This document shows positions 15,215 to 57,505 of a stretch of DNA of 64,000 nucleotides, piece after piece. The notes beneath the pieces are model-generated. The model made no database searches, was not told where the DNA came from, and was given only the letters and a program-made list of their open reading frames with translations. This stretch comes from Trachythela sp. YZ-2020. Its lineage: Eukaryota > Cnidaria > Anthozoa > Malacalcyonacea > Clavulariidae. Location: positions 1-64,000 of the forward strand of contig JADLSH010000173.1 in the NCBI GenBank assembly GCA_016169945.1, in the 5' to 3' direction. Position 1 is the first letter of the stretch. The number at the start of each line of letters is the position of its first letter. Made by a program: the position numbers and the translations under genes.

Positions 15215-15713
15215 CTGTAGCACGAAGCTCTACTGTTTCTATATTACGCTTCATCGCTGCCAAAAAAGAAACACATTCAAACGATCAGAAAAAAGCTTAT
15301 TTTTATCGGAAACCTGATATGAATTAAATACGTAACATTTTGTTTACAAATGTTTTGTACATCACTATTTTGTATATCTTAAAATGACCCGAGATATGCC
15401 CGAGATGTAGGAGGTATGCATACAGGCTATTGGTCCGATTCTTACGAAACGCTTTTTGAACGATGAATTTTGCACGGAATTGCTAATAAACGTAGTTCAA
15501 AACAGTGAATTTTTTAAGATTTCAATCGAGAAATACAAAAAAAACTGCAGGGTATCTCGACAAGAACTTTTTAGATTTGGATTCAGCGTGTTTTAATCTA
15601 TAAGAATATGTAAAGTTCTTAGCTTAGCGAGGTGTCCAATGAAACTAAACGTTTTGGTGCAGTAGCTGACGGCCTATAATACATTAATGCCAAGATCTCT
15701 CGCCCGGTTATAT

Positions 15714-17560: not shown

Positions 17561-17582
17561 GTCAAATGCATGTATATATATA

Positions 17583-17800
17583 TAATGGACATTGAAAGAA
17601 AACAATAAGGATTTCAGTATTAATTGGCAAATTTTAAAACATTCTATTTCGTATACGGGAGGATCAAAAACAAGGATTGTTTACTCAACAAAAGAGCTGA
17701 AATAACAAATTTCGCGTAAACAACGCAAACAAAGCCATGCATGCACACATTGTCTCCCACACACACTCCCACGCTCCGGCAGGAAGCATATAAGCGGTCA
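17583..17800 (+). pseudogene. Penelope-like element, 3' coding fragment
   Basis: The + strand matches the last codons of the PLE ORF found intact at 50295-50570 (LKENNKDFSINWQILKHSIS, then NKDCLLNKRAEI and a HAHIVS-like end). Two short deletions remove the Cys-containing block after TGGSK and part of the final segment. It is followed directly by a PLE hammerhead. A (TA)n-type tract precedes it (17574-17582), so this is a heavily 5'-truncated insertion of the same PLE family. Confidence 0.75.
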
Positions 17801-17820
17801 TTTCTTTCGATATTTGTAAA

Positions 17821-17861
17821 CTGCCTGATGATTCTTTTACAGATGAAACAGCCTGTTGCAG
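17821..17861 (+). ncRNA. Hammerhead ribozyme motif, PLE type
   Basis: The core CTGATGA, a short stem II, GAAA, and a minimal helix III (ACA/TGT with a GCC loop) lead to a GTT cleavage triplet. Helix I is CTGC/GCAG. Stem II is weak (TCT/AGA). PLE terminal repeats are known to carry hammerheads with very short helix III. This one sits directly downstream of a PLE coding remnant, as expected. Confidence 0.7.
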
Positions 17862-17993
17862 ACAAGTTTTGAGGTAAGTGAAAATATATATATATATATA
17901 TATACGTGTAGGTTTAGGTCTACGAAACGCAAAGAGTGCTCGACAACATATAGTTAGAGCAAATTATAGATTTTCGCTTACCTCAAAACTTGT

Positions 17994-18054
17994 CTGCAAC
18001 AGGCTGTTTCATCTGTAAAAGAATCTGTAAAAGAATCATCAGGCAGTGATGATT
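17994..18054 (-). ncRNA. Hammerhead motif, PLE type, stem II duplicated
   Basis: Minus-strand copy of the same motif, but TCTGTAAAAGAA is duplicated, lengthening the stem II segment. It is head-to-head with the + strand copy at 18059. Together they form an inverted pair with only a few bases between. Confidence 0.55.
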
Positions 18055-18058
18055 CTGA

Positions 18059-18097
18059 CTGATGATTCTTTTACAGATGAAACAGCCTGTTGCAGAC
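18059..18097 (+). ncRNA. Hammerhead motif, PLE type, helix I 5' strand damaged
   Basis: CTGATGA, stem II, GAAA and the GTT site are intact. The 5' strand of helix I reads TCTGA instead of CTGC, so cleavage is doubtful. It is followed by the PLE downstream sequence TTTTGAGGTAAGCGAAAATC and then (TA)n. Confidence 0.5.
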
Positions 18098-18149
18098 AAG
18101 TTTTGAGGTAAGCGAAAATCTATATATATATATATATATATAGTCAAAT

Positions 18150-18193
18150 CTGCAGACATGCATGTTTCGCCGTTCAACGGCTCGTCAGTGCAG
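18150..18193 (-). ncRNA. Hammerhead ribozyme, retrozyme type
   Basis: Read on the minus strand: helix I CTGCA, core CTGACGA, stem II GCCGT-TGA-ACGGC, GAAA, a tiny helix III (ACAT/ATGT) ending GTC, then TGCAG completing helix I. All invariant core positions are present. Confidence 0.85.
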
Positions 18194-18365
18194 CTTGTAA
18201 CGCAGCCTAGATGCGAGTGAATTCGTATTTATACACCATACTCTTGCCCTCACCCTCACCCTCACCAAGCGCATGTGGAACAATACTCAGACACATGCGC
18301 ATCCAGACATGCGTGAAGTGTCTTGGGGCCAGAGTGCTCAAACGACCACAAGGGAAGTGAGCTTT

Positions 18366-18408
18366 TGCAGACATGCATGTTTCGCCGTTCAACGGCTCGT
18401 CAGTGCAG
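18366..18408 (-). ncRNA. Hammerhead ribozyme, retrozyme type
   Basis: Same core as the preceding motif. Helix I is shortened to four pairs because the unit boundary replaces the fifth base. Confidence 0.75.
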
Positions 18409-18647
18409 CTTGTAACGCAGTCTAGATGCGAGTGACTTCGTATTTATACACCATACTCTTGCCCTCACCAAGCGCATGTGGTACAATACTCAGACACATG
18501 CGCATCCAGACATGCGTGAAGTGTCCTGGGGCCAGAGTGCTCAAACGACCACAAGGGAAGTGAGCTTTTGCATTATAGCTTATATAGCCACCAATTAACC
18601 TCACAGAGTGCTCAACAACACAAGTGAAGGAGTATATATAGTTAAAT

Positions 18648-18691
18648 CTGCAGACATGCATGTTTCGCCGTTCAACGGCTCGTCAGTGCAG
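18648..18691 (-). ncRNA. Hammerhead ribozyme, retrozyme type
   Basis: Complete motif identical to the array consensus, including five-pair helix I and GTC cleavage triplet. Confidence 0.85.
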
Positions 18692-18889
18692 CTTGTAACG
18701 CAGTCTAGATGCGAGTGACTTCGTATTTATACACCATACTCTTGCTCTCACCAAGCGCATGTGGTACAATACTCAGACACATGCGCATCCAGACATGCGT
18801 GAAGTGTCTTGGGGCCAGATTGCTCATACGACCACAAGGAAGTGAGCTTTGCATTATCGCTTAGAGCTTTGCATTATCGCGCATAGTTT

Positions 18890-19016
18890 TCGCTTACGTC
18901 AATGTAACCACTACAGTCTGTTTCAAGCAATAAGCGATCATCAAGTGCAGGCGAGCTTGATGATCGCTTATTGCGTGAAACAGGCTGTAGTGAATACCTT
19001 GAGGTACGCGAAAACT
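18890..19016. repeat. PLE-derived inverted repeat with decayed hammerhead
   Basis: TAGTTTTCGCTTACGTCAA at the left and TTGAGGTACGCGAAAACTA at the right are inverted, as are the TGATCATCAAG and CTTGATGATCGC segments near the middle. The right half resembles the PLE hammerhead, with TTGATGA in place of CTGATGA, stem II TCGC/GCG, then GAAACAGGCTGT. Losing the core C should abolish cleavage. Confidence 0.55.
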
Positions 19017-19219
19017 ATATTTGCTCCATCTATATGATATTGAGCATTCTTTGGCATTTCGTGAACCAAAACACGCTCAGTACCCTGCCCAGTGGCGTGC
19101 TGGCAGGGGGGGCCGGGGGGGGGGGCATGCCCCCCCCAGCGAAGACTTTTTAGGGGGCGCCAAAACATAAATGGGGCGCCGAAATTGCACAAAATCACGC
19201 AAAAGCGCACTGTTTATTT

Positions 19220-20042: not shown

Positions 20043-21508
20043 AGGGCTGTTGGTGAATCTGACTAATGATGCATGTGGGTTGTGACAGATGGTGTGACGT
20101 ATGTGTGACCTGTGATCGTGACGGTGGTATCAAGATGTGGACTATGATGAAAATTGTTGTACGAAGTGGAAGCACGGGTTGACAATGTAGTACGTAATGA
20201 GTGAATTGCGGTCTGTGTGGTGAATGTGGATAATGATGTATGTGGTTTGTGACAGATGGCGTGACGTATGTGTGACATGATTGTCGTGACTTTGTTTTGG
20301 CTTCTCGCTCTTTGGGAGAATTGTGAATGGCGGACTTGGGTATGGCACATTGTGTCCAAATTTCAGTCTGGTCAACATACATCTGGTTAGTTTGTCAAGC
20401 CATTTTTGTAATGCTTTATTTGCTGAGTTGTTAGATATTGCTGAATGTGGAATGAGTGAGTAATGGTTGGTTAAGGCATGTTGCTGATGCTTAACCTTTT
20501 CCTGTGAGTATTGGCCGAGATTGGGGTTTCGATTAAGGTTTGAAATCCAGTGAGATCAGATGTTGAGGAGGGGTACAGTGGTGAAAATTGTTGTGCTGAG
20601 TGGAAGAATCACTTGACAATGTGGTACGAAGTGAGTGTAGTGTGGTCTGTGATGGATGGTGGTGAATCTGAATAACGGTGTTTTGGTGTGTGACAGATGG
20701 CGTGACGCATGTGTGACATGGTGATTGTGACAGTGGGATCAAGAGGTGGACAAAGAGATGAAAATTGTTGTATGAAGTGGAAGCATTGATTGACAATGTA
20801 GTACGGAAGGAATGAAGTGCGGTCTGTGTGGCGAATGTGGATAATTATGTATGTGGTTTGTGACAGATGGCATGACAATGTGGTACGAAGTGAGTGTAGT
20901 GTGGTCTGTGATGGATGGTGGTGAATCTGAATAATGGTGTTTTGGTGTGTGACAGATGGCGTGACGCATGTGTGACATGATGATTGTGACAGTGGGATCA
21001 AGAGGTGGACAAAGAGATGAAAATTGTTGTATGAAGTGGAAGCATTGATTGACAATGTAGTACGGAAGGAATAAAGTGTGGTCTGTTTGGCGAATGTGGA
21101 TAATAATGTATGTGGTTTGTGACAGATGGCATGACAATGTGGTACGAAGTGAGTGTAGTGTGGTCTGTGATGGATGGTGGTGAATCTGAATAACGGTGTT
21201 TTGGTGTGTGACAGATGGCGTGACGCATGTGTGACATGATGATTGTGACAGTGGGATCAAGAAGTGGACAAAGAGATGAAAATTGTTGTATGAAGTGGAG
21301 GCATTGATTGACAATGTAGTACGGAAGGAATGAAGTGTGGTCTGTGTGGTGAATGTGGATAATTATGTATGTGGTTTGTGACAGATGGCATGACGCATGC
21401 GTGACATGATGTTCGTGACTTTGTTTTGGCTTCTCGCTCTTTGGGAGAATTATGAATGGCGGACTTAGGTATGGTACATTGTGTCCAAGTTTAAGTCTGG
21501 TCAACATT
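20043..21508. repeat. Tandem repeat of about 259 bp with diverged flanking copies
   Basis: GACAGATGGCGTGACGCATG recurs at 20694, 20952 and 21211 (periods 258-259), alternating with GACAGATGGCATGAC at 20865, 21121 and 21380. Outer, more diverged copies begin near 20085 and 20254. The blocks 20220-20380 and 21340-21508 are homologous and both end near CAGTCTGGTCAACAT or AAGTCTGGTCAACAT. The long minus-strand reading frames here are by-products of the repeats lacking stop codons. Confidence 0.85.
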
Positions 21509-21519
21509 CAACATTATTG

Positions 21520-22473
21520 CAATCTGGACTCATGGAATTGAAAAACTCCAACTATTTTTAACCTACATTAACAATTTCCACCCTACAATAAAATTTGATT
21601 ACATATATTCACATAAATCAGTTAACTTTCTCGACACAACCATCTACATCAACTCCAACAATAAACTTGAATCAGATCTATACATTAAGCCAACGGACAG
21701 AACCCTCCTATTACACCAAAACTCGTTCCACCCTCAAGCATGCAGAAATGCAGTTATTTACAGCCAGGCACTACGGTACAGACGTATTATCACTGACAAC
21801 GACAAACTACAACAACGACTGAACCATCTACTTGTTGCACTCATCCACCGTGGACACAAACATGACAACATAATAGCAAATTTCAACAAAGCATTACAAT
21901 TCACTCAACATGAATTACTTAACAAGGACAAGACACCCAAAACAAACAACAGCCCTATATTCACAATACCATACAATAACAATACTAAATACATTGCACA
22001 AATATTACGCAAACACTGGAGCATCATTGAAAATGATCCTACATTGCAAATTCTATGGCAAGAACCTCCAATTGTAGCGTATCAAAGAAATAGAAATCTC
22101 AAAGACACACTTGTAACGGCAAAACTCAAAACTAATAATAACAAAAAATAATTTGAATACACAAGACCTGACTAACCTAACACACCATTGACCAATGGTT
22201 AAATACCTAATAAATGACCCCATCATCTACAAAATCCCACCTTACAAAAAGCGATACAAAACAGGCAAACACACACATTGGGCACATTGGATTATAACAA
22301 AGGAATTCACAAGGAACTCAAGATTTCTAACCCCATGCATCACACGCCTTCAATTATCTGATGGTTGGAAAGAACGAGATAAATTGACAACAGAATCACA
22401 GTGGACATATAAAAGGATAAGAACCTTAAATAGCTTTCCTAAAAACTACTATAATCATTGTACAAACAATTAA
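21520..22473 (+). pseudogene. Penelope-like element ORF, C-terminal remnant (second PLE family)
   Basis: One frame from about 21520 reads THGIEKLQLFLTYINNFHP, FLDTTIYINSNNKLESDLYI, KPTDRTLLLHQNSFHP and ALRYRRI. It later reads HWSIIENDPTLQILW and NRNLKDTLVTAKL, ending at about 22150. This is the post-catalytic thumb/linker region of PLE reverse transcriptases (FLD-T-I, KPTD, S-HP and NLKD-LV blocks). After stops, a second frame (22195-22473) has PYKKRYKTGKHTHWAHW and WTYKRIRTLNSFPKNYYN, resembling the C-terminal region where the GIY-YIG endonuclease normally lies, although that motif is not visible. The catalytic motifs are missing. It differs clearly in sequence from the PLE at 45.8-50.6 kb. 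Confidence 0.6.
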
Positions 22474-23336: not shown

Positions 23337-23380
23337 ATCCCCGCTGACGAGTCCATGAGGGACGAAACGCGTACGGGGAT
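23337..23380 (+). ncRNA. Canonical hammerhead ribozyme (third type)
   Basis: Helix I ATCCCCG (23337-23343) pairs perfectly with CGGGGAT (23374-23380). The core CTGACGA is at 23344-23350. Stem II GTCC/GGAC has an ATGAG loop. GAAA is at 23364-23367. Helix III is only A-U and C-G with a two-base GC loop, and the cleavage triplet is GTA, with cleavage expected after A23373. All conserved residues are present. Such minimal helix III is characteristic of PLE hammerheads, and a PLE remnant lies 0.9 kb upstream on the same strand. Confidence 0.9.
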
Positions 23381-27639: not shown

Positions 27640-29873
27640 TGTTACAGACTTGATAGACTACATAAAAAAGGCGGAGGAGTCTGTGCATATGTCAAAAAAA
27701 CTATGAAAGTAACTATATTAAACGACTTGACACAAACATCAGAGTCAAACTTCCAACAACTCTGGATTAAGCTTCAAAATAAGAAGATGAAGACAATAAT
27801 AATATGCGTGACCTATAGACCACCTGATAGCCCGCTTAATTGTATTCAGGACGATCTCAGACCAAATTATACAGTATACAGGCACTCACTATGAACAAAC
27901 CAATTTTTATTCTTGGTGATTTGAACTGTAACTTATTGAAAGAGGGCCCGGAAAAAAGAGTTATTACAGAACTTTGTGATGATGTAAATCTCAAGCAAAT
28001 AATAAAGGATCCAACAAGGATTACAGACACGTCGCAATCGCTTATTGATATTATATTAGTTTCTACAGAAGCCGCAATCCTCGAAAGTGGAGTTTTACAT
28101 TCCTCAATCAGTGATCATTTTCCAATTTATGTAATAACGAAACTGAAGGTCCCAAAGATACCCCCGACGTATATCACGGTGAGAAGTTACAGAAATTATG
28201 ATCCTACAGTATTTTCCACTGAACTGGCTACGAAATCTGATTGTTTGTTATCGATATTTACCGAAGCAGATGTAAACGCAAAAACGAAAGCACTTAAGGA
28301 AACGATTCAATCAACATTAAACCTCCACGCACCAATTAAAACAATCAAAATTAGGAGCCGTACTAACACATTCGTTACGCCAGACACGAAAGAACTTATG
28401 ACAACTCGAGACAAATTACATCAGAGATTTTTAAAATCACGTTGTAAGAGGGATTGGGAAAAGTACAGAGAATCTCGTAATAAAGTTAAAGTTATACTGA
28501 AGGAGTCAGCAATAAATCATTTATCCGATGAAGTTAAAGCTAACAAGAACAATCCAGGTTCACTTTGGAAAATAATAAACAATTCGATACCTGTGAAAGA
28601 GAAGGAAAAACACTTTTATACGAAAGAACTCAAGACGGTTGTTGAAGACTTTAACAAATATTTTACTTCAGTCGGTAAAATCACTGCCACCGCAGCTTTA
28701 GACCTAGCAAACAAAAATAATATTGTGCTATCTGACCCCCTGTTGAACGACGTATCCTATCCTATGGAAGAACAGTTTAAATTTGAACCTGTTACTTGTT
28801 CAAAAATTCGACGAATTATTACAGATATGCCTAGAAACAAATCACCGGGGCCTGACAAGTTAAGCATGGGTGTCGTCAAAGATTGTTTACCCGTCATCTT
28901 GGGACCTCTCACGAACATAATTAACTGTTCCTTTCAGTCAGGTGTGTTTCCTGACTTATGGAAATTATCGGAGGTGATACCTTTGCTTAAAGATGGCGAT
29001 CATGAGACTCCGTCCAACAATCGACCCCTCTCCCTTTTAGAAGTTTTATCAAAGGTCTGTGAAAGAGTTGCACTTGATCAATTTGGGTCATATATAACAG
29101 GAAACCAACGCTTATCACGACATCAAAATGGAAATAGGAAACACCACTCAACAGAAACTTTTAACATTTTTATTACGGATAAGATGTTGGAAGCAATGGA
29201 CAACAAACATGTAACAGCTCTTGTTTTATTAGACTTGTCTAAAGCTTATGACAGCATCAATCACAAGATCCTCCTGCATAAGTTAAAATGCGTAGGAGCG
29301 TCACCACCAGTAATCAAATGGTTTGAAAGTTATTTATCGGGCAGAACACAATATGTACGGATAAGGTCAACCATTTCTCCAGTCATAGCACTAACTCATG
29401 GAGTGCCTCAAGGCTCCATTCTGTCACCATTTTTGTTTGGAATTTATGTCAACGATCTACCTGCTATAACGATCTCAAGTGATGTAGACTCTTACGTTGA
29501 TGATTCAAAACTCCACCTTGCATTTCTAGTCGAAGACATACAACAGGCAATCCTTAAATTAGAAAATGATTTGCATAACACCGCAAAATGGTGCCTGGAA
29601 CATCAATTGTTAATAAATCCCAACAAGACTAAATTCCTCTTGGTAGGAACACGATCAATGTTACAGAAGTTACCAACAACAATTAGTCTGAAATTTCTCG
29701 GTGAAACTCTTAGGCCAGTACCAGTTGCTAAAGATCTGGGTATGCATCTAGACTTACATCTTTCTTATGATGAACATATCTCTAAACTATCATCTACGTG
29801 CATTAATAGATTATGCCAAATCAACAGAGTAAAGGAGAGCTTTGATAAAGAAACGTTATCATTACTTAATTGA
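27640..29873 (+). pseudogene. LINE ORF2: endonuclease and reverse transcriptase
   Basis: The reading starts in YRLDRLHKKGGGVCAYVKK, continues to WIKLQ, VTYRPPDSPLN, and shifts frame near 27880. It then runs 29873-ward through FILGDLNCNLL and ISDHFPI, the GDxN and SDH catalytic blocks of the apurinic-type endonuclease. Reverse transcriptase blocks follow: KSPGPDKLS, NNRPLSLLEVLSKVCERV, LLDLSKAYDSINHKIL (motif A), HGVPQGSILSPFLFGIYVND (motif B) and SYVDDSK (motif C, YVDD). The usual FADD is YVDD here, which is acceptable for reverse transcriptases. The enzyme nicks DNA and copies LINE RNA at the nick. The long open stretch (about 660 codons) suggests a young copy broken only by single-base shifts. 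Confidence 0.85.
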
Positions 29874-39640: not shown

Positions 39641-39937
39641 CAATGACATGTCTTGATTGGTCCACGCATAAAGTTTGACCATGCAGTGAGTTAAGGAATG
39701 TCCAACGAGATCTCTCCACAACTCCGTGTAAAATCATGTGACTGGGACAGGGTGTTTCAAATCCAAGTGTCAAATCCGATTCACATCCCGTCTGTTCACA
39801 GGCAACGTGCAGTACGAAACGAATGTGGAGTCATGCATACGCCAGCCATTAAAAGGAAATTTCCTTTCGAATGAAATTTGGAAAAAGATACAAGTAAATT
39901 GAAGTATATATATATATATATATATATATAGTCAAAT

Positions 39938-39981
39938 CTGCAGACATGCATGTTTCGCCGTTCAACGGCTCGTCAGTGCAG
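39938..39981 (-). ncRNA. Hammerhead ribozyme, first of 20 in the array
   Basis: Minus strand: helix I CTGCA, CTGACGA, stem II GCCGT-TGA-ACGGC, GAAA, CATGCATGTC (helix III of at most four pairs with a GC loop; cleavage expected after GTC), then TGCAG closing helix I. The same sequence recurs about 7 bp after each unit start listed for the array. Such a minimal helix III is unstable in a monomer and is thought to act better as a dimer, which a tandem transcript would provide. Confidence 0.9.
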
Positions 39982-42900
39982 CTTGTAACGCAGTCTAGAT
40001 GCGAGTGACTTCGTATTTATACACCATACTCTTGCCCTCACCAAGCGCATGTGGTACAATACTCAGACACATGCGCATCCAGACATGCGTGAAGTGTCTT
40101 AGCCAGAGTGCTCAAACGACCACAAGGGAAGTGAGCTTTTGCATTATAGCTTATTAGCCACCAATTAACCTCACAGAGTGCTCAACAACACAAGTGAAGG
40201 AGCATATATAGTCAAATCTGCAGACATGCATGTTTCGCCGTTCAACGGCTCGTCAGTGCAGCTTGTAACGCAGTCTAGATGCGAGTGACTTCGTATTTAT
40301 ACACCATACTCTTGCCCTCACCAAGCGCATGTGGTACAATACTCAGACACATGCGCATCCAGACATGCGTGAAGTGTCTTGGGGCCAGAGTGCTCAAACG
40401 ACCACAAGGGAAGTGAGCTTTTGCATTATAGCTTATTAGCCACCAATTAACCTCACAGAGTGCTCAACAACACAAGTGAAGGAGCATATATAGTCAAATC
40501 TGCAGACATGCATGTTTCGCCGTTCAACGGCTCGTCAGTGCAGCTTGTAACGCAGTCTAGATGCGAGTGACTTCGTATTTATACACCATACTCTTGCCCT
40601 CACCAAGCGCATGTGGTACAATACTCAGACACATGCGCATCCAGACATGCGTGAAGTGTCTTGGGGCCAGAGTGCTCAAACGACCACAAGGGAAGTGAGC
40701 TTTTGCATTATAGCTTATTAGCCACCAATTAACCTCACAGAGTGCTCAACAACACAAGTGAAGGAGCATATATAGTCAAATCTGCAGACATGCATGTTTC
40801 GCCGTTCAACGGCTCGTCAGTGCAGCTTGTAACGCAGTCTAGATGCGAGTGACTTCGTATTTATACACCATACTCTTGCCCTCACCAAGCGCATGTGGTA
40901 CAATACTCAGACACATGCGCATCCAGACATGCGTGAAGTGTCTTGGGGCCAGAGTGCTCAAACGACCACAAGGGAAGTGAGCTTTTGCATTATAGCTTAT
41001 TAGCCACCAATTAACCTCACAGAGTGCTCAACAACACAAGTGAAGGAGCATATATAGTCAAATCTGCAGACATGCATGTTTCGCCGTTCAACGGCTCGTC
41101 AGTGCAGCTTGTAACGCAGTCTAGATGCGAGTGACTTCGTATTTATACACCATACTCTTGCCCTCACCAAGCGCATGTGGTACAATACTCAGACACATGC
41201 GCATCCAGACATGCGTGAAGTGTCTTGGGGCCAGAGTGCTCAAACGACCACAAGGGAAGTGAGCTTTTGCATTATAGCTTATTAGCCACCAATTAACCTC
41301 ACAGAGTGCTCAACAACACAAGTGAAGGAGCATATATAGTCAAATCTGCAGACATGCATGTTTCGCCGTTCAACGGCTCGTCAGTGCAGCTTGTAACGCA
41401 GTCTAGATGCGAGTGACTTCGTATTTATACACCATACTCTTGCCCTCACCAAGCGCATGTGGTACAATACTCAGACACATGCGCATCCAGACATGCGTGA
41501 AGTGTCTTGGGGCCAGAGTGCTCAAACGACCACAAGGGAAGTGAGCTTTTGCATTATAGCTTATTAGCCACCAATTAACCTCACAGAGTGCTCAACAACA
41601 CAAGTGAAGGAGCATATATAGTCAAATCTGCAGACATGCATGTTTCGCCGTTCAACGGCTCGTCAGTGCAGCTTGTAACGCAGTCTAGATGCGAGTGACT
41701 TCGTATTTATACACCATACTCTTGCCCTCACCAAGCGCATGTGGTACAATACTCAGACACATGCGCATCCAGACATGCGTGAAGTGTCTTGGGGCCAGAG
41801 TGCTCAAACGACCACAAGGGAAGTGAGCTTTTGCATTATAGCTTATTAGCCACCAATTAACCTCACAGAGTGCTCAACAACACAAGTGAAGGAGCATATA
41901 TAGTCAAATCTGCAGACATGCATGTTTCGCCGTTCAACGGCTCGTCAGTGCAGCTTGTAACGCAGTCTAGATGCGAGTGACTTCGTATTTATACACCATA
42001 CTCTTGCCCTCACCAAGCGCATGTGGTACAATACTCAGACACATGCGCATCCAGACATGCGTGAAGTGTCTTGGGGCCAGAGTGCTCAAACGACCACAAG
42101 GGAAGTGAGCTTTTGCATTATAGCTTATTAGCCACCAATTAACCTCACAGAGTGCTCAACAACACAAGTGAAGGAGCATATATAGTCAAATCTGCAGACA
42201 TGCATGTTTCGCCGTTCAACGGCTCGTCAGTGCAGCTTGTAACGCAGTCTAGATGCGAGTGACTTCGTATTTATACACCATACTCTTGCCCTCACCAAGC
42301 GCATGTGGTACAATACTCAGACACATGCGCATCCAGACATGCGTGAAGTGTCTTGGGGCCAGAGTGCTCAAACGACCACAAGGGAAGTGAGCTTTTGCAT
42401 TATAGCTTATTAGCCACCAATTAACCTCACAGAGTGCTCAACAACACAAGTGAAGGAGCATATATAGTCAAATCTGCAGACATGCATGTTTCGCCGTTCA
42501 ACGGCTCGTCAGTGCAGCTTGTAACGCAGTCTAGATGCGAGTGACTTCGTATTTATACACCATACTCTTGCCCTCACCAAGCGCATGTGGTACAATACTC
42601 AGACACATGCGCATCCAGACATGCGTGAAGTGTCTTGGGGCCAGAGTGCTCAAACGACCACAAGGGAAGTGAGCTTTTGCATTATAGCTTATTAGCCACC
42701 AATTAACCTCACAGAGTGCTCAACAACACAAGTGAAGGAGCATATATAGTCAAATCTGCAGACATGCATGTTTCGCCGTTCAACGGCTCGTCAGTGCAGC
42801 TTGTAACGCAGTCTAGATGCGAGTGACTTCGTATTTATACACCATACTCTTGCCCTCACCAAGCGCATGTGGTACACTCAGACACATGCGCATCCAGACA

Positions 42901-43249
42901 TGCGTGAAGTGTCTTGGGGCCAGAGTGCTCAAACGACCACAAGGGAAGTGAGCTTTTGATATAGTCAAATCTGCAGACATGCATGTTTCGCCGTTCAACG
43001 GCTCGTCAGTGCAGCTTGTAACGCAGTCTTGATGCGAGTGACTTCGTATTTATACACCATACTCTTGCCCTCACCAAGCGCATGTGGTACAATACTCAGA
43101 CACATGCGCATCCAGACATGCGTGAAGTGTCTTGGGGCCAGAGTGCTCAAACGACCACAAGGGAAGTGAGCTTTTGCATTATAGCTTATTAGCCACCAAT
43201 TAACCTCACAGAGTGCTCAACAACACAAGTGAAGGAGCATATATAGTCA

Positions 43250-43367
43250 AATATATATATATATATACAATATCTGTGTTGTGATTGTAGTAGATAAGAG
43301 TGCTCAACACAAAATCATTTGTAGAGCAAAATTTATTATAATTTTAAAACAGCTATATATATATATA
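43250..43367. repeat. Interrupting segment 1 with (TA)n borders
   Basis: (TA)n, then CAATATCTGTGTTGTGATTG, GAGTGCTCAACACAAAATCA, and a shorter A+T end with (TA)n. The same segment recurs at 44420-44574 and 45629-45784, longer at the right end (CCGTTTTTGTTACTACTTCT). It has no hammerhead but shares the GAGTGCTCAAC motif with the retrozyme and PLE units. Confidence 0.8.
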
Positions 43368-44419
43368 GTCAAATCTGCAGACATGCATGTTTCGCCGTTC
43401 AACGGCTCGTCAGTGCAGCTTGTAACGCAGTCTAGATGCGAGTGACTTCGTATTTATACACCATACTCTTGCCCTCACCAAGCGCATGTGGTACAATCAG
43501 ACACATGCGCATCCAGACATGCGTGAAGTGTCTTGGGGCCAGAGTGCTCAAACGACCACAAGGGAAGTGAGCTTTTGCATTATAGCTTATTAGCCACCAA
43601 TTAACCTCACAGAGTGCTCAACAACACAAGTGAAGGAGCATATATAGTCAAATCTGCAGACATGCATGTTTCGCCGTTCAACGGCTCGTCAGTGCAGCTT
43701 GTAACGCAGTCTAGATGCGAGTGACTTCGTATTTATACACCATACTCTTGCCCTCACCAAGCGCATGTGGTACAATACTCAGACACATGCGCATCCAGAC
43801 ATGCGTGAAGTGTCTTGGGGCCAGAGTGCTCAAACGACCACAAGGGAAGTGAGCTTTTGCATTATAGCTTATTAGCCACCAATTAACCTCACAGAGTGCT
43901 CAACAACACAAGTGAAGGAGCATATATAGTCAAATCTGCAGACATGCATGTTTCGCCGTTCAACGGCTCGTCAGTGCAGCTTGTAACGCAGTCTAGATGC
44001 GAGTGACTTCGTATTTATACACCATACTCTTGCCCTCACCAAGCGCATGTGGTACCATACTCAGACACATGCGCATCCAGACATGCGTGAAGTGTCTTGG
44101 GGCCAGAGTGCTCAAACGACCACAAGGGAAGTGAGCTTGCATACAGACATGCATGTTTCGCCGTTCAACGGCTCGTCAGTGCAGCTTGTAACGCAGTCTT
44201 GATGCGAGTGACTTCGTAATTATACACCATACTCTTTCCCTCACCAAGCGCATGTGGTACAATACTCAGACACATGCGCATCCAGACATGCGTGAAGTGT
44301 CTTGGGGCCAGAGTGCTCAAACGACCACAAGGGAAGTGAGCTTTTGCATTATAGCTTATTAGCCACCAATTAACCTCACAGAGTGCTCAACAACACAAGT
44401 GAAGGAGCATATATAGTCA

Positions 44420-44574
44420 AATATATATATATATATACAATATCTGTGTTGTGATTGTAGTAGATAAGAGTGCTCAACACAAAATCATTTGTAGAGCAAA
44501 ATTTATTATAATCTTAAAACAGCCGTTTTTGTTACTACTTCTTCGACTTATATATATATATATATATATATATA
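44420..44574. repeat. Interrupting segment 2 with (TA)n borders
   Basis: Second copy of the segment at 43250-43367, ending in CTTCTTCGACTTA and a 26-bp (TA)n tract. Confidence 0.8.
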
Positions 44575-45628
44575 GTCAAATCTGCAGACATGCATGTTTC
44601 GCCGTTCAACGGCTCGTCAGTGCAGCTTGTAACACAGTCTAGATGCGAGTGACTTCGTATTTATACACCATACTCTTGCCCTCACCAAGCGCATGTGGTA
44701 CAATACTCAGACACATGCGCATCCAGACATGCGTGAAGTGTCTTGGGGCCAGAGTGCTCAAACGACCACAAGGGAAGTGAGCTTTTGCATTATAGCTTAT
44801 TAGCCACCAATTAACCTCACAGAGTGCTCAACAACACAAGTGAAGGAGCATATATAGTCAAATCTGCAGACATGCATGTTTCGCCGTTCAACGGCTCGTC
44901 AGTGCAGCTTGTAACGCAGTCTAGATGCGAGTGACTTCGTATTTATACACCATACTCTGCCCTCACCAAGCGCATGTGGTACAATACTCAGACACATGCG
45001 CATCCAGACATGCGTGAAGTGTCTTGGGGCCAGAGTGCTCAAACGACCACAAGGGAAGTGAGCTTTTGCATTATAGCTTATTAGCCACCAATTAACCTCA
45101 CAGAGTGCTCAACAACACAAGTGAAGGAGCATATATAGTCAAATCTGCAGACATGCATGTTTCGCCGTTCAACGGCTCGTCAGTGCAGCTTGTAACGCAG
45201 TCTAGATGCGAGTGACTTCGTATTTATACACCATACTCTTGCCCTCACCAAGCGCATGTGGTACAATACTCAGACGCATGCGCATCCAGACATGCGTGAA
45301 GTGTCTTGGGGCCAGAGTGCTCAAACGACCACAAGGGAAGTGAGCTTGCATACAGACATGCATGTTTCGCCGTTCAACGGCTCGTCAGTGCAGCTTGTAA
45401 CGCAGTCTTGATGCGAGTGACTTCGTATTTATACACCATACTCTTGCCCTCACCAAGCGCATGTGGTACAATACTCAGACACATGCGCATCCAGACATGC
45501 GTGAAGTGTCTTGGGGCCAGAGTGCTCAAACGACCACAAGGGAAGTGAGCTTTTGCATTATAGCTTATTAGCCACCAATTAACCTCACAGAGTGCTCAAC
45601 AACACAAGTGAAGGAGCATATATAGTCA

Positions 45629-45784
45629 AATATATATATATATATACAATATCTGTGTTGTGATTGTAGTAGATAAGAGTGCTCAACACAAAATCATTTG
45701 TAGAGCAAAATTTATTATAATCCTAAAACAGCCGTTTTTGTTACTACTTCTTCGACTTATATATATATATATATATATATATAT
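45629..45784. repeat. Interrupting segment 3, joining the array to a PLE
   Basis: Third copy. Its right (TA)n tract (about 45758-45784) directly abuts the terminal region of the minus-strand PLE, so array and PLE are physically contiguous. Confidence 0.8.
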
Positions 45785-45810
45785 AGATTTTCGCTTACCT
45801 CAAAACTTGT

Positions 45811-45851
45811 CTGCAACAGGCTGTTTCATCTGTAAAAGAATCATCAGGCAG
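45811..45851 (-). ncRNA. Hammerhead motif, PLE type (3' of PLE A)
   Basis: CTGC/GCAG helix I, CTGATGA, weak stem II, GAAA, ACA-GCC-TGT helix III, GTT cleavage triplet. Identical to the copies at 48229-48269 and 50598-50638. Confidence 0.7.
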
Positions 45852-45878
45852 TTTACAAGTATCGAAAGAAATGACCGC

Positions 45879-48115
45879 TTATATGCTTCCTGCCGGGGCG
45901 TGGGTGTGTGTGTAGGAGACAATGTGTGCATGCATGGCTTTGTTTGCGTTGTTTACGCGAAATTTGTTACGATGACGACATCGTGAAATTATTTCAGCTC
46001 TTTTGTTGAGTAAACAATCCTTGTTTTTTTCTTTCAAAATACAAAATTTTTCTTCTAAACATAAATTGCATCGTTTTGATCCTCCCGTATACGAAATAGA
46101 ATGTTTTAAAATTTGCCAATTAATACTGAAATCCTTATTGTTTTCTTTCAATGTCCAAATATATTTCGAAAGTTCCGTGTCATTTGCATGCTTTTTATGC
46201 TGAAAAGATTTAGTGTGGTTGGCCAATCGCTCTTTGAATGTGGTTGCAGTCATGCCAATGTAATTTTTGATCGTGTTTGTGTTGCTTACTGTGACTGTTG
46301 CTTTGTATACTATGTCCCTAGTCATGCATTGTTTTTGAAGCGGGCAAATGGTGTTTTTCCTACAACTGCAATTGGTAGTGTCCCGCTCTTGTGGCTTGTT
46401 ATTTCTAGATATGCGTGCATTGTGTTTAGTGATTACTGACTTAATATTGTTCATGCAGCTATAGCTTACTTTCACCGTATTTCTGTTAAAAATTTTATGT
46501 AGCTTGTGGTGCGGTGGAAAATGCTTGTCAATTAAACTAAGGAAATTACGTCCCATGTTTGTGCTAACACTCTTGCTAAATGGTGGGTTGAACCAAATGA
46601 TGTTGCGTTGCCTATTCCTGCGTTGTTTTTGCGGTGTGTGCTGAGTGTAGCTAAGTTCATGATTAAAGTTGCTATGCCTAAGTGCGTTCTGATATATGGG
46701 TGCAGATTCCTGAAAAGTTTGCTCATCTGATGAAAGAAGTGCGATGCGCTTGTTAATTGATGCAGGTAGTTGCCTTGTGATGCTCGGTGGATGATTAGAG
46801 TGCATATTTATGTATAGTGGGTCGTCATTGGGCTTCCTATAGGGCCTATGTTTTCCATTGTTAAGGTCGAAAGTTACATCTAAAAAGTTTACGATGCGTA
46901 AATTTGATTCGGCGGTAATTTTTAGGTCAAACTGCTCGAAAATTTTGTGGAGATCTTTTCTTGTTTTGTCTGCTAAACGTGCTGATTTACTTTTTATAAT
47001 AGCCAAACCGTCATCTCTATATAGGCCGATGCTTTCTTTGCCAAATTTCTTACTTAGGTGGTTTAAAATGAAAAGGCCTACTAACTCACAAATTTCCGCG
47101 CCGTCGAAACTGCCCATGCTAACGTCAAACAAACTATGGCTATCTTTTTTTTTTTTTTTTTTTTTATCCATGAAATTCCGGTATTGAAAAGGAGAGATTT
47201 TCTAGCGTGTTTTATTATTGAAATATCGTTTTCAGGTATAGTAGCCAAATTTGAAGCCCAAGATAAAGCTTGGTCCAATAGTTTTTCAGAAATAGATGGG
47301 TAGAAATCGACAATGTCAAACGAAATAAAACTGTGTCTGTCCTTATCTTTTATATTGCCAAACCACTGAATAACTTGTTTTGTATTCCTCCATTGATTTA
47401 AATTCAGTTTTTCTCTCAAATTGGAATTAATTTTGTCCAAAATAACTTTGCTTATTTTTCCGGATTCGCTTTTAGCGGGATTAATTAATCGGCATTTTGG
47501 ATTGTTTTCGAAATTTTCTTTGTGATCTTTTAAAGATATAAATGCTTCGCGTTTTTTCATTTTTTCAATTCTGTCGCCGATTCCTAAATTGTTCGAAATA
47601 TTTTTTAGTTCTGAATCAATTTCATCTATAGTGTCCTCGGATCCATGCTTATATGTTTTTGTGATGTTGTCATGTAAGAGCTTGTCGTATGTGTCGAGCG
47701 AGGTTTCAAAAATATTCCTAGTTTTGTCTGCAAAAATGAAAATGTTGGGAGACGAATTGATTTTCTTTAGATCGTTAGTCAAAGATTTCTGAAATTGGTT
47801 CCTATATGGCCGAAATTGTAAATTTTCGATTAATTTTATAAGGTCGTCTTCGAAAGGTTTCATTTCCGGAATAGAAGGAGGTGTTTTGTTGGATGCAAGG
47901 CCGAAATGGTTGTTTTGGTTTTCACATTTTTGGTTTTTGTTAAGAAAGAAATTAGCTTTCCATCTCATACGTTTTATTACACTTTCCACTTTTTCAATCA
48001 AATTTTTCAAATAAGCGTCCTGTGATGGTATAGGGATATTCTTTAGTGAATAGTCAAATCGAAATTGCCGCATTTTGAAGTTAAATAGAAATGAATAACG
48101 TAAACAAGAGTGCAC
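45879..48115 (-). pseudogene. PLE protein: reverse transcriptase plus GIY-YIG endonuclease (one frameshift)
   Basis: The N-terminal frame starts at 48115 and includes KPFEDDLIKLIENLQFRPY, an RLINPAKSESGKIS block, FISFDIVDFYPSIS (motif A, catalytic Asp) and SWIKK. A homopolymer of about 23 A residues on the coding strand (47144-47166) then shifts the frame. It continues with SHSLFDVSMGSFDGAEICEL, GLYRDDGLAII (motif C, YRDD), VNFLDVTFDL, and KPNDDPLYINMHSNHPPSIT. A Cys cluster follows (NCSCRKNTICPLQKQC), then the endonuclease: IVYKATV, NYIGMTATTFKERLANH (GIY-YIG with the Arg helix), LSKYIWTLK (Glu is replaced or not obvious) and CNLCLEEKFCILK. C-terminal GIY-YIG is the classic EN+ PLE arrangement. 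The enzyme copies its RNA at a nicked target. This copy is inactive as written. Confidence 0.85.
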
Positions 48116-48228
48116 AACCGATATACGGGTGCGAATATACGTGTAGGTTTAGGTCTACGAAACGCAAAGAGTGCTCGACAACATATAGTTAGAGCAAATT
48201 ATAGATTTTCGCTTACCTCAAAACTTGT

Positions 48229-48269
48229 CTGCAACAGGCTGTTTCATCTGTAAAAGAATCATCAGGCAG
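48229..48269 (-). ncRNA. Hammerhead motif, PLE type (5' of PLE A)
   Basis: Same motif and orientation as at 45811, located upstream of the PLE A start codon. It also lies downstream of the truncated copy ending at 48297, so it is shared by both units. Confidence 0.7.
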
Positions 48270-48296
48270 TTTACAAGTATCGAAAGAAATGACCGC

Positions 48297-48766
48297 TTAT
48301 ATGCTTCCTGCCGGGGCGTGGGTGTGTGTGTAGGAGACAATGTGTGCATGCATGGCTTTGTTTGCGTTGTTTACGCGAAATTTGTTACGATGACGACATC
48401 GTGAAATTATTTCAGCTCTTTTGTTGAGTAAACAATCCTTGTTTTTTTCTTTCAAAATACAAAATTTTTCTTCTAAACATAAATTGCATCGTTTTGATCC
48501 TCCCGTATACGAAATAGAATGTTTTAAAATTTGCCAATTAATACTGAAATCCTTATTGTTTTCTTTCAATGTCCAAATATATTTCGAAAGTTCCGTGTCA
48601 TTTGCATGCTTTTTATGCTGAAAAGATTTAGTGTGGTTGGCCAATCGCTCTTTGAATGTGGTTGCAGTCATGCAGTGGAAGCGGGCAAATGGTGTTTTTC
48701 CTACAACTGCAATTGGTAGTGTCCCTCTCTTGTGGCTTGTTATTTCTAGATATGCGTGCATTGCGC
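48297..48766 (-). pseudogene. PLE copy B, antisense 3' part (GIY-YIG only)
   Basis: Minus-strand sequence near-identical to 45879-46425. It encodes MTATTFKERLANHTKSFQ to the C-terminus HAPAGSI. About 85 bp are missing (after GTTGCAGTCATGC, before GAAGCGGGCAAATGG). At about 48766 the sequence flips to + strand PLE. Confidence 0.85.
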
Positions 48767-50570
48767 TCGACACATACAACAAGCTCTTACATGACAACAT
48801 CACAAAAACATATAAGCATGGATCCGAGGACACTATAGATGAAATTGATTCAGAACTAAAAAATATTTCGAACAATTTAGGAATCGGCGACAGAATTGAA
48901 AAAATGAAAAAACGCGAAGCATTTATATCTTTAAAAGATCACAAAGAAAATTTCGAAAACAATCCAAAATGCCGATTAATTAATCCCGCTAAAAGCGAAT
49001 CCGGAAAAATAAGCAAAGTTATTTTGGACAAAATTAATTCCAATTTGAGAGAAAAACTGAATTTAAATCAATGGAGGAATACAAAACAAGTTATTCAGTG
49101 GTTTGGCAATATAAAAGATAAGGACAGACACAGTTTTATTTCGTTTGACATTGTCGATTTCTACCCATCTATTTCTGAAAAACTATTGGACCAAGCTTTA
49201 TCTTGGGCTTCAAATTTGGCTACTATACCTGAAAACGATATTTCAATAATAAAACACGCTAGAAAATCTCTCCTTTTCAATACCGGAATTTCATGGATAA
49301 AAAAAGATAGCCATAGTTTGTTTGACGTTAGCATGGGCAGTTTCGACGGCGCGGAAATTTGTGAGTTAGTAGGCCTTTTCATTTTAAACCACCTAAGTAA
49401 GAAATTTGGCAAAGAAAGCATCGGCCTATATAGAGATGACGGTTTGGCTATTATAAAAAGTAAATCAGCACGTTTAGCAGACAAAACAAGAAAAGATCTC
49501 CACAAAATTTTCGAGCAGTTTGACCTAAAAATTACCGCCGAATCAAATTTACGCATCGTAAACTTTTTAGATGTAACTTTCGACCTTAACAATGGAAAAC
49601 ATAGGCCCTATAGGAAGCCCAATGACGACCCACTATACATAAATATGCACTCTAATCATCCACCGAGCATCACAAGGCAACTACCTGCATCAATTAACAA
49701 GCGCATCGCACTTCTTTCATCAGATGAGCAAACTTTTCAGGAATCTGCACCCATATATCAGAACGCACTTAGGCATAGCAACTTTAATCATGAACTTAGC
49801 TACACTCAGCACACACCGCAAAAACAACGCAGGAATAGGCAACGCAACATCATTTGGTTCAACCCACCATTTAGCAAGAGTGTTAGCACAAACATGGGAC
49901 GTAATTTCCTTAGTTTAATTGACAAGCATTTTCCACCGCACCACAAGCTACATAAAATTTTTAACAGAAATACGGTGAAAGTAAGCTATAGCTGCATGAA
50001 CAATATTAAGTCAGTAATCACTAAACACAATGCACGCATATCTAGAAATAACAAGCCACAAGAGAGGACACTACCAATTGCAGTTGTAGGAAAAACACCA
50101 TTTGCCCGCTTCAAAAACAATGCATGACTAGGGACATAGTATACAAAGCAACAGTCACAGTAAGCAACACAAACACGATCAAAAATTACATTGGCATGAC
50201 TGCAACCACATTCAAAGAGCGATTGGCCAACCACACTAAATCTTTTCAGCATAAAAAGCATGCAAATGACACGGAACTTTCGAAATATATTTGGACATTG
50301 AAAGAAAACAATAAGGATTTCAGTATTAATTGGCAAATTTTAAAACATTCTATTTCGTATACGGGAGGATCAAAACGATGCAATTTATGTTTAGAAGAAA
50401 AATTTTGTATTTTGAAAGAAAAAAACAAGGATTGTTTACTCAACAAAAGAGCTGAAATAATTTCACGATGTCGTCATCGTAACAAATTTCGCGTAAACAA
50501 CGCAAACAAAGCCATGCATGCACACATTGTCTCCTACACACACACCCACGCCCCGGCAGGAAGCATATAA
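48767..50570 (+). pseudogene. PLE copy C, sense: RT plus GIY-YIG, N-terminus lost
   Basis: It begins inside the ORF (LDTYNKLLHDNITKTYK), lacking the first 140 or so residues. The reverse transcriptase is open through motif A (FDIVDFYPSIS) and motif C (YRDDG), because the A run here is only six bases (SWIKKDSHSLF). A one-base deletion near 50065 (GAGAGGAC versus GAGCGGGAC in copy A) ends the frame in VVGKTPFARFKNNA. The Cys cluster and GIY-YIG continue in the next frame from about 50070, through MTRDIVYKAT at 50124, to TAA 50568-50570. So copies A and C each carry one different frame break. Confidence 0.85.
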
Positions 50571-50597
50571 GCGGTCATTTCTTTCGATACTTGTAAA

Positions 50598-50638
50598 CTG
50601 CCTGATGATTCTTTTACAGATGAAACAGCCTGTTGCAG
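50598..50638 (+). ncRNA. Hammerhead motif, PLE type (3' of PLE C)
   Basis: The complete PLE-type motif 27 bp after the stop codon, followed by TTTTGAGGTAAGCGAAAATC, GTTGTCGAGCACTCTTTGCG and (TA)n. Confidence 0.7.
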
Positions 50639-50727
50639 ACAAGTTTTGAGGTAAGCGAAAATCTATAATTTGCTCTAACTATATGTTGTCGAGCACTCTT
50701 TGCGTTTCGTAGACCTAAACCTACACG

Positions 50728-50811
50728 TATATATATATATATATATATATTGCATTATAGCTTATTAGCCACCAATTAACCTCACAGAGTGCTCAACAAC
50801 ACAAGTGAAGG

Positions 50812-50846
<35 letters not shown>
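50728..50846. repeat. (TA)n tracts enclosing a 65-bp retrozyme fragment
   Basis: Between two (TA)n tracts lies TGCATTATAGCTTATTAGCC through CACAAGTGAAGGATCATATA, matching the end of the 282-bp unit without its hammerhead. Confidence 0.85.
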
Positions 50847-57394: not shown

Positions 57395-57505
57395 ACCCAG
57401 GAGCAGTTGCGAAAAATGCAACTTAGGCTCTCTGGCAGGAAGCGAACCTGAGGCCCTGCGATTCCGGTGCAGCGCTCTAACAAACTGAGCTACAGAGTCT
57501 AGTTG
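57395..57505 (-). mobile_element. tRNA-derived SINE
   Basis: Minus strand: GACTCTGTAGCTCAGTTTGT (A-box region, D-arm GCTC/GAGC), anticodon arm CTGC/GCAG, and GGTTCGCTTCC (B box and T arm). Only five of seven acceptor pairs form and the base 5' of the anticodon is C rather than T, so it is not a working tRNA. A tail with AGTTGC..GCAACT hairpin follows. RNA polymerase III promoter boxes with a non-tRNA tail define SINEs. It lies in the host intron just after the EGF exon. Confidence 0.65.

What the first reader, a model, noticed from the sequence alone, without database searches (positions are those of the whole stretch)
39931..45630. Array of 20 self-cleaving ribozyme units: a retrozyme locus
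Seen: 282-bp non-coding units, head to tail, each with a complete hammerhead on the minus strand. The stretch 40493-42749 is almost homogeneous, and three (TA)n-flanked segments interrupt the end of the array. Known: metazoan retrozymes are short non-coding hammerhead repeats propagated through circular RNA. Inference: this is an active or recently active family; minus-strand transcription would yield about 282-nt RNAs.
Basis: partly seen in the sequence, partly recalled or inferred. Interest (0 to 1): 0.9.

Follow-up and report, generated by a model that had tools for sequence, protein, structure and literature searches.

The report
Ribozyme circles hitchhiking on Penelope retrotransposons
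A 5.7-kb array of twenty hammerhead-ribozyme repeats lies beside a Penelope retrotransposon and shares with it short sequences predicted to form hairpins and the same copy end points, so its predicted circular RNAs are likely copied back into the genome by the Penelope enzyme, which would tell who moves these small ribozyme parasites.

Summary
There are 20 complete type I hammerheads on the minus strand in 39,943-45,388. Ten 282-bp units are identical, nine of them in a row (40,223-42,760). By anatomy this is a metazoan-type retrozyme (RTZ).

The array abuts, through (TA)n, the 3' end of a Penelope-like element (PLE): a telomerase-like RT plus GIY-YIG endonuclease. A second RTZ/PLE junction lies at 17.6-19.1 kb and a 72-bp RTZ piece at 50.75 kb.

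RTZ and PLE share a 3' module: hammerhead, site 1, hairpin A, site 2, hairpin B. The hairpin is GCNC, inner stem, 2-nt bulge, GNGC, then ACUCU. It also occurs in a second PLE subfamily and in a PLE on a bivalve-symbiont contig. A covariance model built without RTZ ranks RTZ hairpin A among its top untrained matches; RTZ hairpin B is weak. All 11 scorable 3' ends fall at site 1 or site 2. All 12 (TA)n tracts in the window border these elements.

Best reading: the ribozyme RNA circularises and PLE protein reverse-transcribes it from these sites at (TA)n. Nothing was shown experimentally, and genome-wide copies could not be searched. Earlier papers proposed PLE mobilisation from coexistence and shared general features.

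The parts
39905..39930 (.). (TA)13 tract at the RNA-sense 3' end of the array
39931..43250 (-). Retrozyme array block 1: 12 hammerheads, including 9 consecutive identical 282-bp units (40223-42760)
40505..40786 (-). Modal 282-bp unit, RNA from ribozyme cleavage site to cleavage site
   Evidence: 10 identical copies
40782..40825 (-). A type I hammerhead of the array: stem I CUGCA/UGCAG, core CUGACGA, stem II GCCGU/ACGGC, GAAA, stem III ACA(UGCA)UGU, cleavage after GUC
40739..40767 (-). Retrozyme hairpin A (GCUC...GAGC-ACUCU), with RT site 1 (UAUAUAU) just 5' of it
40669..40700 (-). Retrozyme hairpin B, with RT site 2 (AAUGCAA) just 5' of it
   Evidence: 8.5 bits, weak
42761..42975 (-). Unit lacking the site 1-site 2 tail module (64-bp deletion); similar 205-bp units at 43941-44145 and 45150-45354
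43251..43367 (-). (TA)n-flanked segment 1: PLE-type tail with hairpin A at 43297-43327; copies at 44421-44574 and 45630-45785
43368..44420 (-). Retrozyme array block 2 (4 hammerheads)
44575..45629 (-). Retrozyme array block 3 (4 hammerheads), duplicate of block 2
45758..45785 (.). (TA)14 tract joining segment 3 to the PLE 3' end (site 1)
45782..48199 (-). Penelope-like element copy 1 with the tail upstream of its ORF; ORF in two frames (48148-47081 and 47201-45879, shifted at an A-run)
48168..48195 (-). PLE hairpin A, in the intact tail between the upstream copy's hammerhead and the ORF
48107..48132 (-). PLE hairpin B (GCAC/GUGC outer stem), just before the ORF
48200..48763 (-). 3' part of a further PLE copy in tandem with copy 1 (collinear with 45782-46422, about 64 bp missing)
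48764..50732 (+). Penelope-like element copy 2, 5'-truncated and inverted (RT to 50127, then GIY-YIG frame 50052-50570), ending at site 2
50750..50821 (-). 72-bp retrozyme tail module alone between (TA)n tracts (unit positions about 13-84)
17578..18142 (+). PLE fragments with an inverted pLTR and 3' ends at sites 1 and 2, then (TA)11
18143..18863 (-). Second retrozyme locus, 3 hammerheads
18883..19080 (+). Tail of a second PLE subfamily in an inverted arrangement; hairpin A at 19023-19050

Best explanation
The array is a metazoan-type retrozyme whose RNA is predicted to self-cleave and circularise and is likely reverse-transcribed in trans by the neighbouring Penelope-like element's protein, which would recognise the hairpin tail that both RNAs are predicted to carry.

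Proposed steps. (1) Minus-strand transcripts cut themselves at GUC in each unit (inferred from a complete hammerhead). (2) The 282-nt monomers circularise (inferred; reported for other metazoan retrozymes). (3) PLE protein, from an intact copy elsewhere in the genome (inferred), binds hairpins A and B, nicks (TA)n DNA and starts cDNA just 5' of either hairpin. Shown here are only the shared hairpin sequences, the shared 3' end points and the (TA)n junctions. (4) On a cleaved linear monomer, site 1 has only 12-18 nt of template upstream. Only a circle or an uncut multimer gives a full copy, so a circle would naturally yield tandem copies. (5) Unequal exchange then duplicated parts of the array (shown: a 1.2-kb duplicated block; the process is inferred).
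For: Complete hammerheads, 20 of 20 in the array.

Shared tail: the PLE tail aligns to the retrozyme at hairpin A with score 34 (0 of 1000 shuffles, maximum 29). The hairpin descriptor gives 47 hits in the window, all in PLE, retrozyme or segment tails, against 9 in 100 shuffled windows. A covariance model from four non-retrozyme hairpins ranks, outside its training sequences and their copies, PLE hairpin B (E 0.0025), the 17 array hairpins A (E 0.053 in 73 kb; 0.00023 within the unit) and the bivalve-contig hairpin B (E 0.058) first; next comes a chance-like 16.9 bits. In the model's own alignment 93.8% of cells pair and the covariation score is reached by 4 of 500 shuffles. Swapping arms among 7 hairpins keeps the pairing in 16 of 5040 cases.

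3' ends: 11 of 11 with an intact reference fall at site 1 (8) or site 2 (3). (TA)n tracts of 12 bp or more: 12 of 12 border these elements.

PMC11167929 (parts 1-2 of 4 read) shows a PLE protein starting RT at two adjacent internal sites downstream of the hammerhead, one in a stem-loop, at AT-rich targets.
Against: No RNA, cleavage, circle or binding was shown. Retrozyme hairpin B scores only 8.5 bits, and the retrozyme hairpins have mismatches in the inner stem. The mutated hairpin A of the second retrozyme locus scores 12.3 bits, E 3.6, below a chance-like hit. The number of doubly changed pairs in the model's alignment (3) is reached by 78 of 500 shuffles. The bivalve-contig tail alone is not clearly like the retrozyme (13 of 1000 shuffles reach its score). 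The descriptor was written after all the hairpins had been seen. The 11 ends are not all independent (duplicated blocks, inverted pLTRs). Rfam models stay below cut-off. The minimal free-energy fold of the 282-nt circle does not show the full hammerhead, and on the isolated motif the hammerhead fold (-9.5) is less stable than the best fold (-12.9). In Anolis, hammerhead mutants did not affect insertion in vitro (PMC11167929). Both PLE copies here look broken: a frame change in each, and copy 2 is 5'-truncated. LINE-type RT ORFs are also present in the window.
Confidence: 0.7

Rival explanations
1. The array is ordinary satellite DNA: an old hammerhead repeat amplified and homogenised by unequal crossing-over, with no current RNA cycle. 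The PLEs merely inserted into its (TA)n edges.
For: A duplicated 1.2-kb higher-order block (6 mismatches) points to recombination in the array. Identical neighbouring units are what recent unequal exchange gives.
Against: It does not explain why unit and PLE share hairpins, or why both end at the same two sites in separate loci. A 72-bp tail module sits alone between (TA)n tracts at 50.75 kb. All 20 hammerheads in the array stay intact.
Confidence: 0.15
2. The unit is not a separate retrozyme but the pLTR plus tail of an unseen Penelope family, left as tandem pLTRs after loss of the ORF.
For: The unit has the PLE pLTR order (hammerhead, site 1, hairpin A, site 2, hairpin B) with the ORF missing.
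Against: No PLE in the window carries this pLTR around an ORF: outside the retrozyme copies themselves, BLAST of the unit finds only the 72-bp tail piece. The unit has its own body of about 130 nt between hairpin B and the hammerhead, and a stem II without the mismatch of the PLE hammerhead.
Confidence: 0.25
3. The retrozyme is mobilised by a LINE, and the similarity to the PLE tail is descent or coincidence.
For: Two RT ORFs that I read as LINE-type lie in the window (14087-15214 and 27840-29873).
Against: No shared 3' tail with them was found: the descriptor has no hit there, and the one model hit near the first LINE, at 15336, has E 0.28. The junctions are (TA)n, as for the PLE.
Confidence: 0.06

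Closest known systems
Metazoan non-LTR retrozymes (Cervera and de la Pena 2020, PMC7229834; parts 1-4 of 6 read)
   Same: Type I hammerhead with short stem III, head-to-tail units of a few hundred bp, no LTR, GC below 50%, coexistence with PLEs.
   Different: The paper names PLEs as candidates from shared hammerheads, tandem form and coexistence. In the parts I read it describes no shared tail hairpins or common RT start sites.
Penelope-like element of Anolis, PAc (Frangieh et al. 2024, PMC11167929; parts 1-2 of 4 read)
   Same: Hammerhead followed by a tail with a stem-loop; two adjacent internal RT start sites; AT-rich targets; an optional genomic 'tail' that corresponds to the stretch between the two sites.
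   Different: Its RT site lies inside the ORF, the stem-loop is AC-rich, and in the parts I read it is not linked to retrozymes. Here the tail lies before the ORF, the targets are (TA)n, and an ORF-less element carries the module.
Adineta vaga Penelope families (PMC3846280; passages read)
   Same: Inverted pLTRs and an optional 31-bp 3' tail, as at 17.9-18.1 and 50.7 kb here.
   Different: No hammerhead, hairpin or stem-loop is mentioned (term search of the main text: 0).
Rfam RAGATH-1 hammerhead (link to PLE-associated, dimer-acting hammerheads is recalled; a paper of that title is only cited in what I read)
   Same: Best Rfam hammerhead match of the unit. The unit's stem III plus loop is a 10-nt palindrome, so dimers are possible.
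   Different: 22.7 bits against a gathering score of 56.3.

Membership tests
Metazoan retrozyme | Complete type I hammerhead (core, three stems, NUH) | tested here: met
   20 of 20 in the array, 0 in 30 shuffled windows
Metazoan retrozyme | Short tandem non-coding units of about 150-450 bp without LTRs | tested here: met
   282 bp; no stop-to-stop ORF of 90 aa or more between 39931 and 45611
Metazoan retrozyme | GC below 50% (text) or below 45% (figure legend) | tested here: inconclusive
   The unit has 47.2% GC: it meets the first limit, not the second
Metazoan retrozyme | Dispersed copies in the genome | tested here: inconclusive
   Two more pieces in the window; the genome search did not complete
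Metazoan retrozyme | Self-cleavage and circular RNA in tissue | not testable with these tools
   No RNA data
Rfam hammerhead families | Match at or above gathering score | tested here: not met
   Best 22.7 bits, RAGATH-1
Penelope-like element (neighbour) | Telomerase-like RT | tested here: met
Penelope-like element (neighbour) | C-terminal GIY-YIG endonuclease | tested here: met
Penelope-like element (neighbour) | Tandem or partial-tandem copies with pLTR, hammerhead and optional tail | tested here: met
   The 3' part of another copy precedes the ORF of copy 1; inverted pLTRs; ends at site 1 or site 2; hammerhead with a mismatch at the base of stem II
Non-autonomous partner of a PLE | Shares the 3' recognition region and the insertion end points with the autonomous element | tested here: met
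   Sequence level only; hairpin B weak
Non-autonomous partner of a PLE | RNA bound and copied by the PLE protein | not testable with these tools
   Needs purified protein and RNA

The most novel reading that the evidence does not exclude
Metazoan retrozymes are the SINEs of Penelope elements: ORF-less Penelope tails. A conserved twin-hairpin tail lets the Penelope reverse transcriptase start at two fixed sites on them. The hammerhead cuts between body and tail, so only a re-closed RNA circle offers a full template, and each insertion can be laid down as a rolling-circle tandem array at (TA)n.
Probability: 0.45. Interest if true: 0.85.

Novelty: new variant of a known kind. Interest (0 to 1): 0.72.

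Why it matters
Who moves metazoan retrozymes is open: the papers I read name PLEs or LINEs as candidates, from coexistence, tandem form and shared hammerheads. This locus gives a molecular handle: the same predicted hairpins and the same two end points in both element types, at (TA)n. It turns the question into a direct assay, in which purified PLE protein plus circular retrozyme RNA should start cDNA at two predicted places. It also suggests why a ribozyme and RNA circles are needed at all: cleavage separates the RT start site from the template, and circularisation would restore it.

Tried and rejected
Rfam hammerhead models: below gathering score. Pfam for the PLE ORFs: nothing meaningful. 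PDB by sequence, one ORF piece: nothing. Viral contigs: no exact match to the core pattern and no PLE relative. Plasmids by tblastn: no match. Foldseek for the endonuclease model: no match at E 0.001 or better; the second look by VIA-align found GIY-YIG folds.

LINE-driven mobilisation was considered and put low. The model hit at 15336 (E 0.28) near the first LINE was taken as chance: no GCUC/GAGC outer stem was seen on reading it. The separate minimal hammerhead at 23344 has no descriptor hit after it, so the tail hairpin is not tied to every hammerhead here.

L001 could not test the tail, because its contig ends just after the hammerhead core. The MAFFT alignment of all six PLE-type hairpins put two out of register; I used the four that align and kept PLE hairpin B and the bivalve-contig hairpin B as untrained tests. 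In one search the arm string for the bivalve-contig hairpin B was two letters too long; one search repeats the test without that hairpin. A ~100-bp 'repeat' that I noted inside the PLE copies was a misreading: on checking, BLAST shows it as ordinary PLE coding sequence around the inverted junction, and the start of copy 2 is 48764.

N-terminal extensions of 5 PLE relatives among the 120 listed encode residues (STL, ALL, VEH) compatible with an AGCACTCT box before the ORF. This is only a hint and is not used as evidence.

Searches for print listed no paper whose title or abstract start reports a tail shared by retrozymes and PLEs. Only passages or parts of some were read. Three papers wanted were not held.
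Full report
WHAT IS THERE. TRF reports a 282-bp period over 39924-42958 and 43361-44138 and a 281-bp period over 44568-45347, with 205-bp variants. The minus strand carries the hammerhead core 20 times, and all 20 meet a strict type I descriptor. The descriptor has 24 hits in the window and 0 in 30 shuffled windows. Read from cleavage site to cleavage site, the 20 units are eleven of 282 bp, three of 279-281, three of 205-215 without a 'tail' module, and three interrupted by a (TA)n-flanked segment. Ten are identical, nine in a row at 40223-42760. A 1.2-kb higher-order block is duplicated (1200 matches, 6 mismatches, 13 gap columns). The unit's hammerhead has stem I CUGCA/UGCAG, core CUGACGA, a 5-bp stem II, GAAA, and stem III ACA(UGCA)UGU, with cleavage after GUC. 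Rfam models score it below their cut-offs.

THE SHARED MODULE. Behind its own weaker hammerhead (stem I CUGC/GCAG, stem III ACA/UGU, a mismatch at the base of stem II) the PLE has CUAUAAUUU, then a hairpin GCUC-UAAC-UAUAU-GUUG-UC-GAGC-ACUCU, about 35 nt, then a second hairpin GCAC-CCG-UAUAU-CGG-UU-GUGC-ACUCU, then the ORF. The retrozyme has CUAUAUAU, then GCUC...GAGC-ACUCU (hairpin A), about 40 nt, then GCUC...GAGC-ACUCU (hairpin B). The PLE tail aligns with the retrozyme exactly there: score 34, maximum of 1000 shuffles 29. The same hairpin occurs in a second PLE subfamily at 19023-19050, in the three (TA)n-flanked segments, and twice in L002. L002 is a contig filed under a bivalve gill symbiont; I infer that the PLE there is host DNA. 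In it, two hairpins lie between a hammerhead and the ORF of a PLE matching at 47% identity. The relation of the L002 tail to the retrozyme by simple alignment is weak (13 of 1000 shuffles).

TESTS OF THE HAIRPIN. A descriptor (GCNC, 7-20 nt, U-N bulge, complementary GNGC, ACUCU with Y allowed) has 47 hits in the window: 3 PLE A, 1 PLE B, 1 second subfamily, 3 segment, 17 retrozyme A, 22 retrozyme B. None lies elsewhere, and 100 shuffled windows gave 9 in all. I wrote the descriptor after seeing the hairpins. A more independent test is a covariance model built from four hairpins without any retrozyme. Besides its training sequences and their copies, its best matches in 73 kb are PLE hairpin B (E 0.0025), the 17 array hairpins A (19.8 bits, E 0.053) and the L002 hairpin B (E 0.058). 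Then come a chance-like hit at 15336 (16.9 bits, E 0.28) and, below it, the mutated hairpin A of the second retrozyme locus (12.3 bits, E 3.6). Within one unit's stretch alone, hairpin A has E 0.00023 and hairpin B only 8.5 bits, E 0.14. On the four-sequence alignment 93.8% of cells pair, the covariation score is reached by 4 of 500 shuffles, and slid registers pair at most 50%; three pairs change on both sides, a count that 78 of 500 shuffles also reach. Re-dealing the arms of seven hairpins keeps the real pairing in 16 of 5040 cases.

ENDS. Eleven 3' ends can be compared with an intact copy: five PLE, five retrozyme, one of the second PLE subfamily. All 11 fall, within a few bases, at one of two places: site 1, just 5' of hairpin A (8), or site 2, just 5' of hairpin B (3) (my reading of the printout). 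They are not all independent. Two kinds of end (19.08 kb and the three segments) have no intact reference and are left out. The tail-less units are missing roughly the stretch between sites 1 and 2, the two 205-bp ones also up to the cleavage site. All 12 (TA)n tracts of 12 bp or more in the window border PLE, retrozyme or segment ends. The 5' end of the array lies at unit position 6-7 and that of the 72-bp piece at about 13-19, both close to the ribozyme cleavage point. The third 5' end, at 18.86 kb, lies at about 70-75 (my reading).

MECHANISM. A PLE protein of Anolis starts cDNA inside its RNA at two adjacent sites downstream of the hammerhead, the commonest in an AC-rich stem-loop, on AT-rich targets, and the two sites explain an optional genomic tail; hammerhead mutants did not affect insertion there (PMC11167929, parts 1-2 of 4 read). 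The locus here shows a like pattern for its PLE and also for the ORF-less retrozyme. I therefore infer that the retrozyme RNA is copied by PLE protein. After self-cleavage a linear monomer has site 1 only 12-18 nt from its 5' end, so copying from site 1 is fruitful only on a circle or an uncut multimer. Four of the five retrozyme 3' ends are at site 1 and lead into multi-unit blocks, which fits a circle. Array growth by unequal exchange probably also happened, and I cannot apportion the two.

LIMITS. No RNA data exist here. The source organism is unknown to me. The genome search did not complete (16 calls, listed under Tried and rejected), so dispersal beyond this window is untested. The circle's minimal free-energy fold does not show the full hammerhead, and on the isolated motif the hammerhead fold (-9.5) is less stable than the best fold (-12.9); whether it forms in the cell is open.

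PRIOR WORK. The 2020 NAR paper (PMC7229834, parts 1-4 of 6 read) names PLEs a strong candidate because both have type I hammerheads, tandem copies and coexistence. PMC7761336, PMC11722881 and PMC8969392 (passages read) say much the same, and PMC11722881 suggests that retrozymes are reduced PLEs. I found no report of a shared tail in the listings. Most subscription papers are not held, including the 2014 and 2017 papers on PLE hammerheads.

VERDICT. By anatomy the object is a metazoan-type retrozyme. What is new is its Penelope tail, which makes the question of its mobiliser testable.

Noticed in passing
23344-23373 (+): A second, different minimal hammerhead (CTGACGAGTCCATGAGGGACGAAACGCGTA), about 1.2 kb after an RT-like ORF fragment (21495-22151) that I read by eye as PLE-like (Pfam found nothing); no tail hairpin follows it.
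   Followed up: partly
17905-18120; 50194-50732 versus 48135-48673: Inverted PLE pLTRs; the 539-bp inverted pair is identical, so very recent or gene-converted.
   Followed up: partly
48200-48764: Tandem 3' part of a PLE with about 64 bp missing, joined head-on at 48763/48764 to inverted copy 2.
   Followed up: partly
unit positions 204-211 (RNA sense): TATAAATA lies about 45 nt before the hammerhead core in the modal unit: a candidate TATA box.
   Followed up: no
43250-43353, 44420-44546, 45629-45757: The (TA)n-flanked segments look like the tail of a third, unseen PLE family.
   Followed up: partly
20614-21394: Three copies of a 259-bp tandem repeat, 97% matches.
   Followed up: no
57430-57497 (-): tRNA-like match (Rfam tRNA, 32.6 bits), perhaps a tRNA gene or a SINE.
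   Followed up: no
15336-15374 (+): Weak hairpin-model hit (E 0.28) just after a LINE-type ORF; read as chance.
   Followed up: partly
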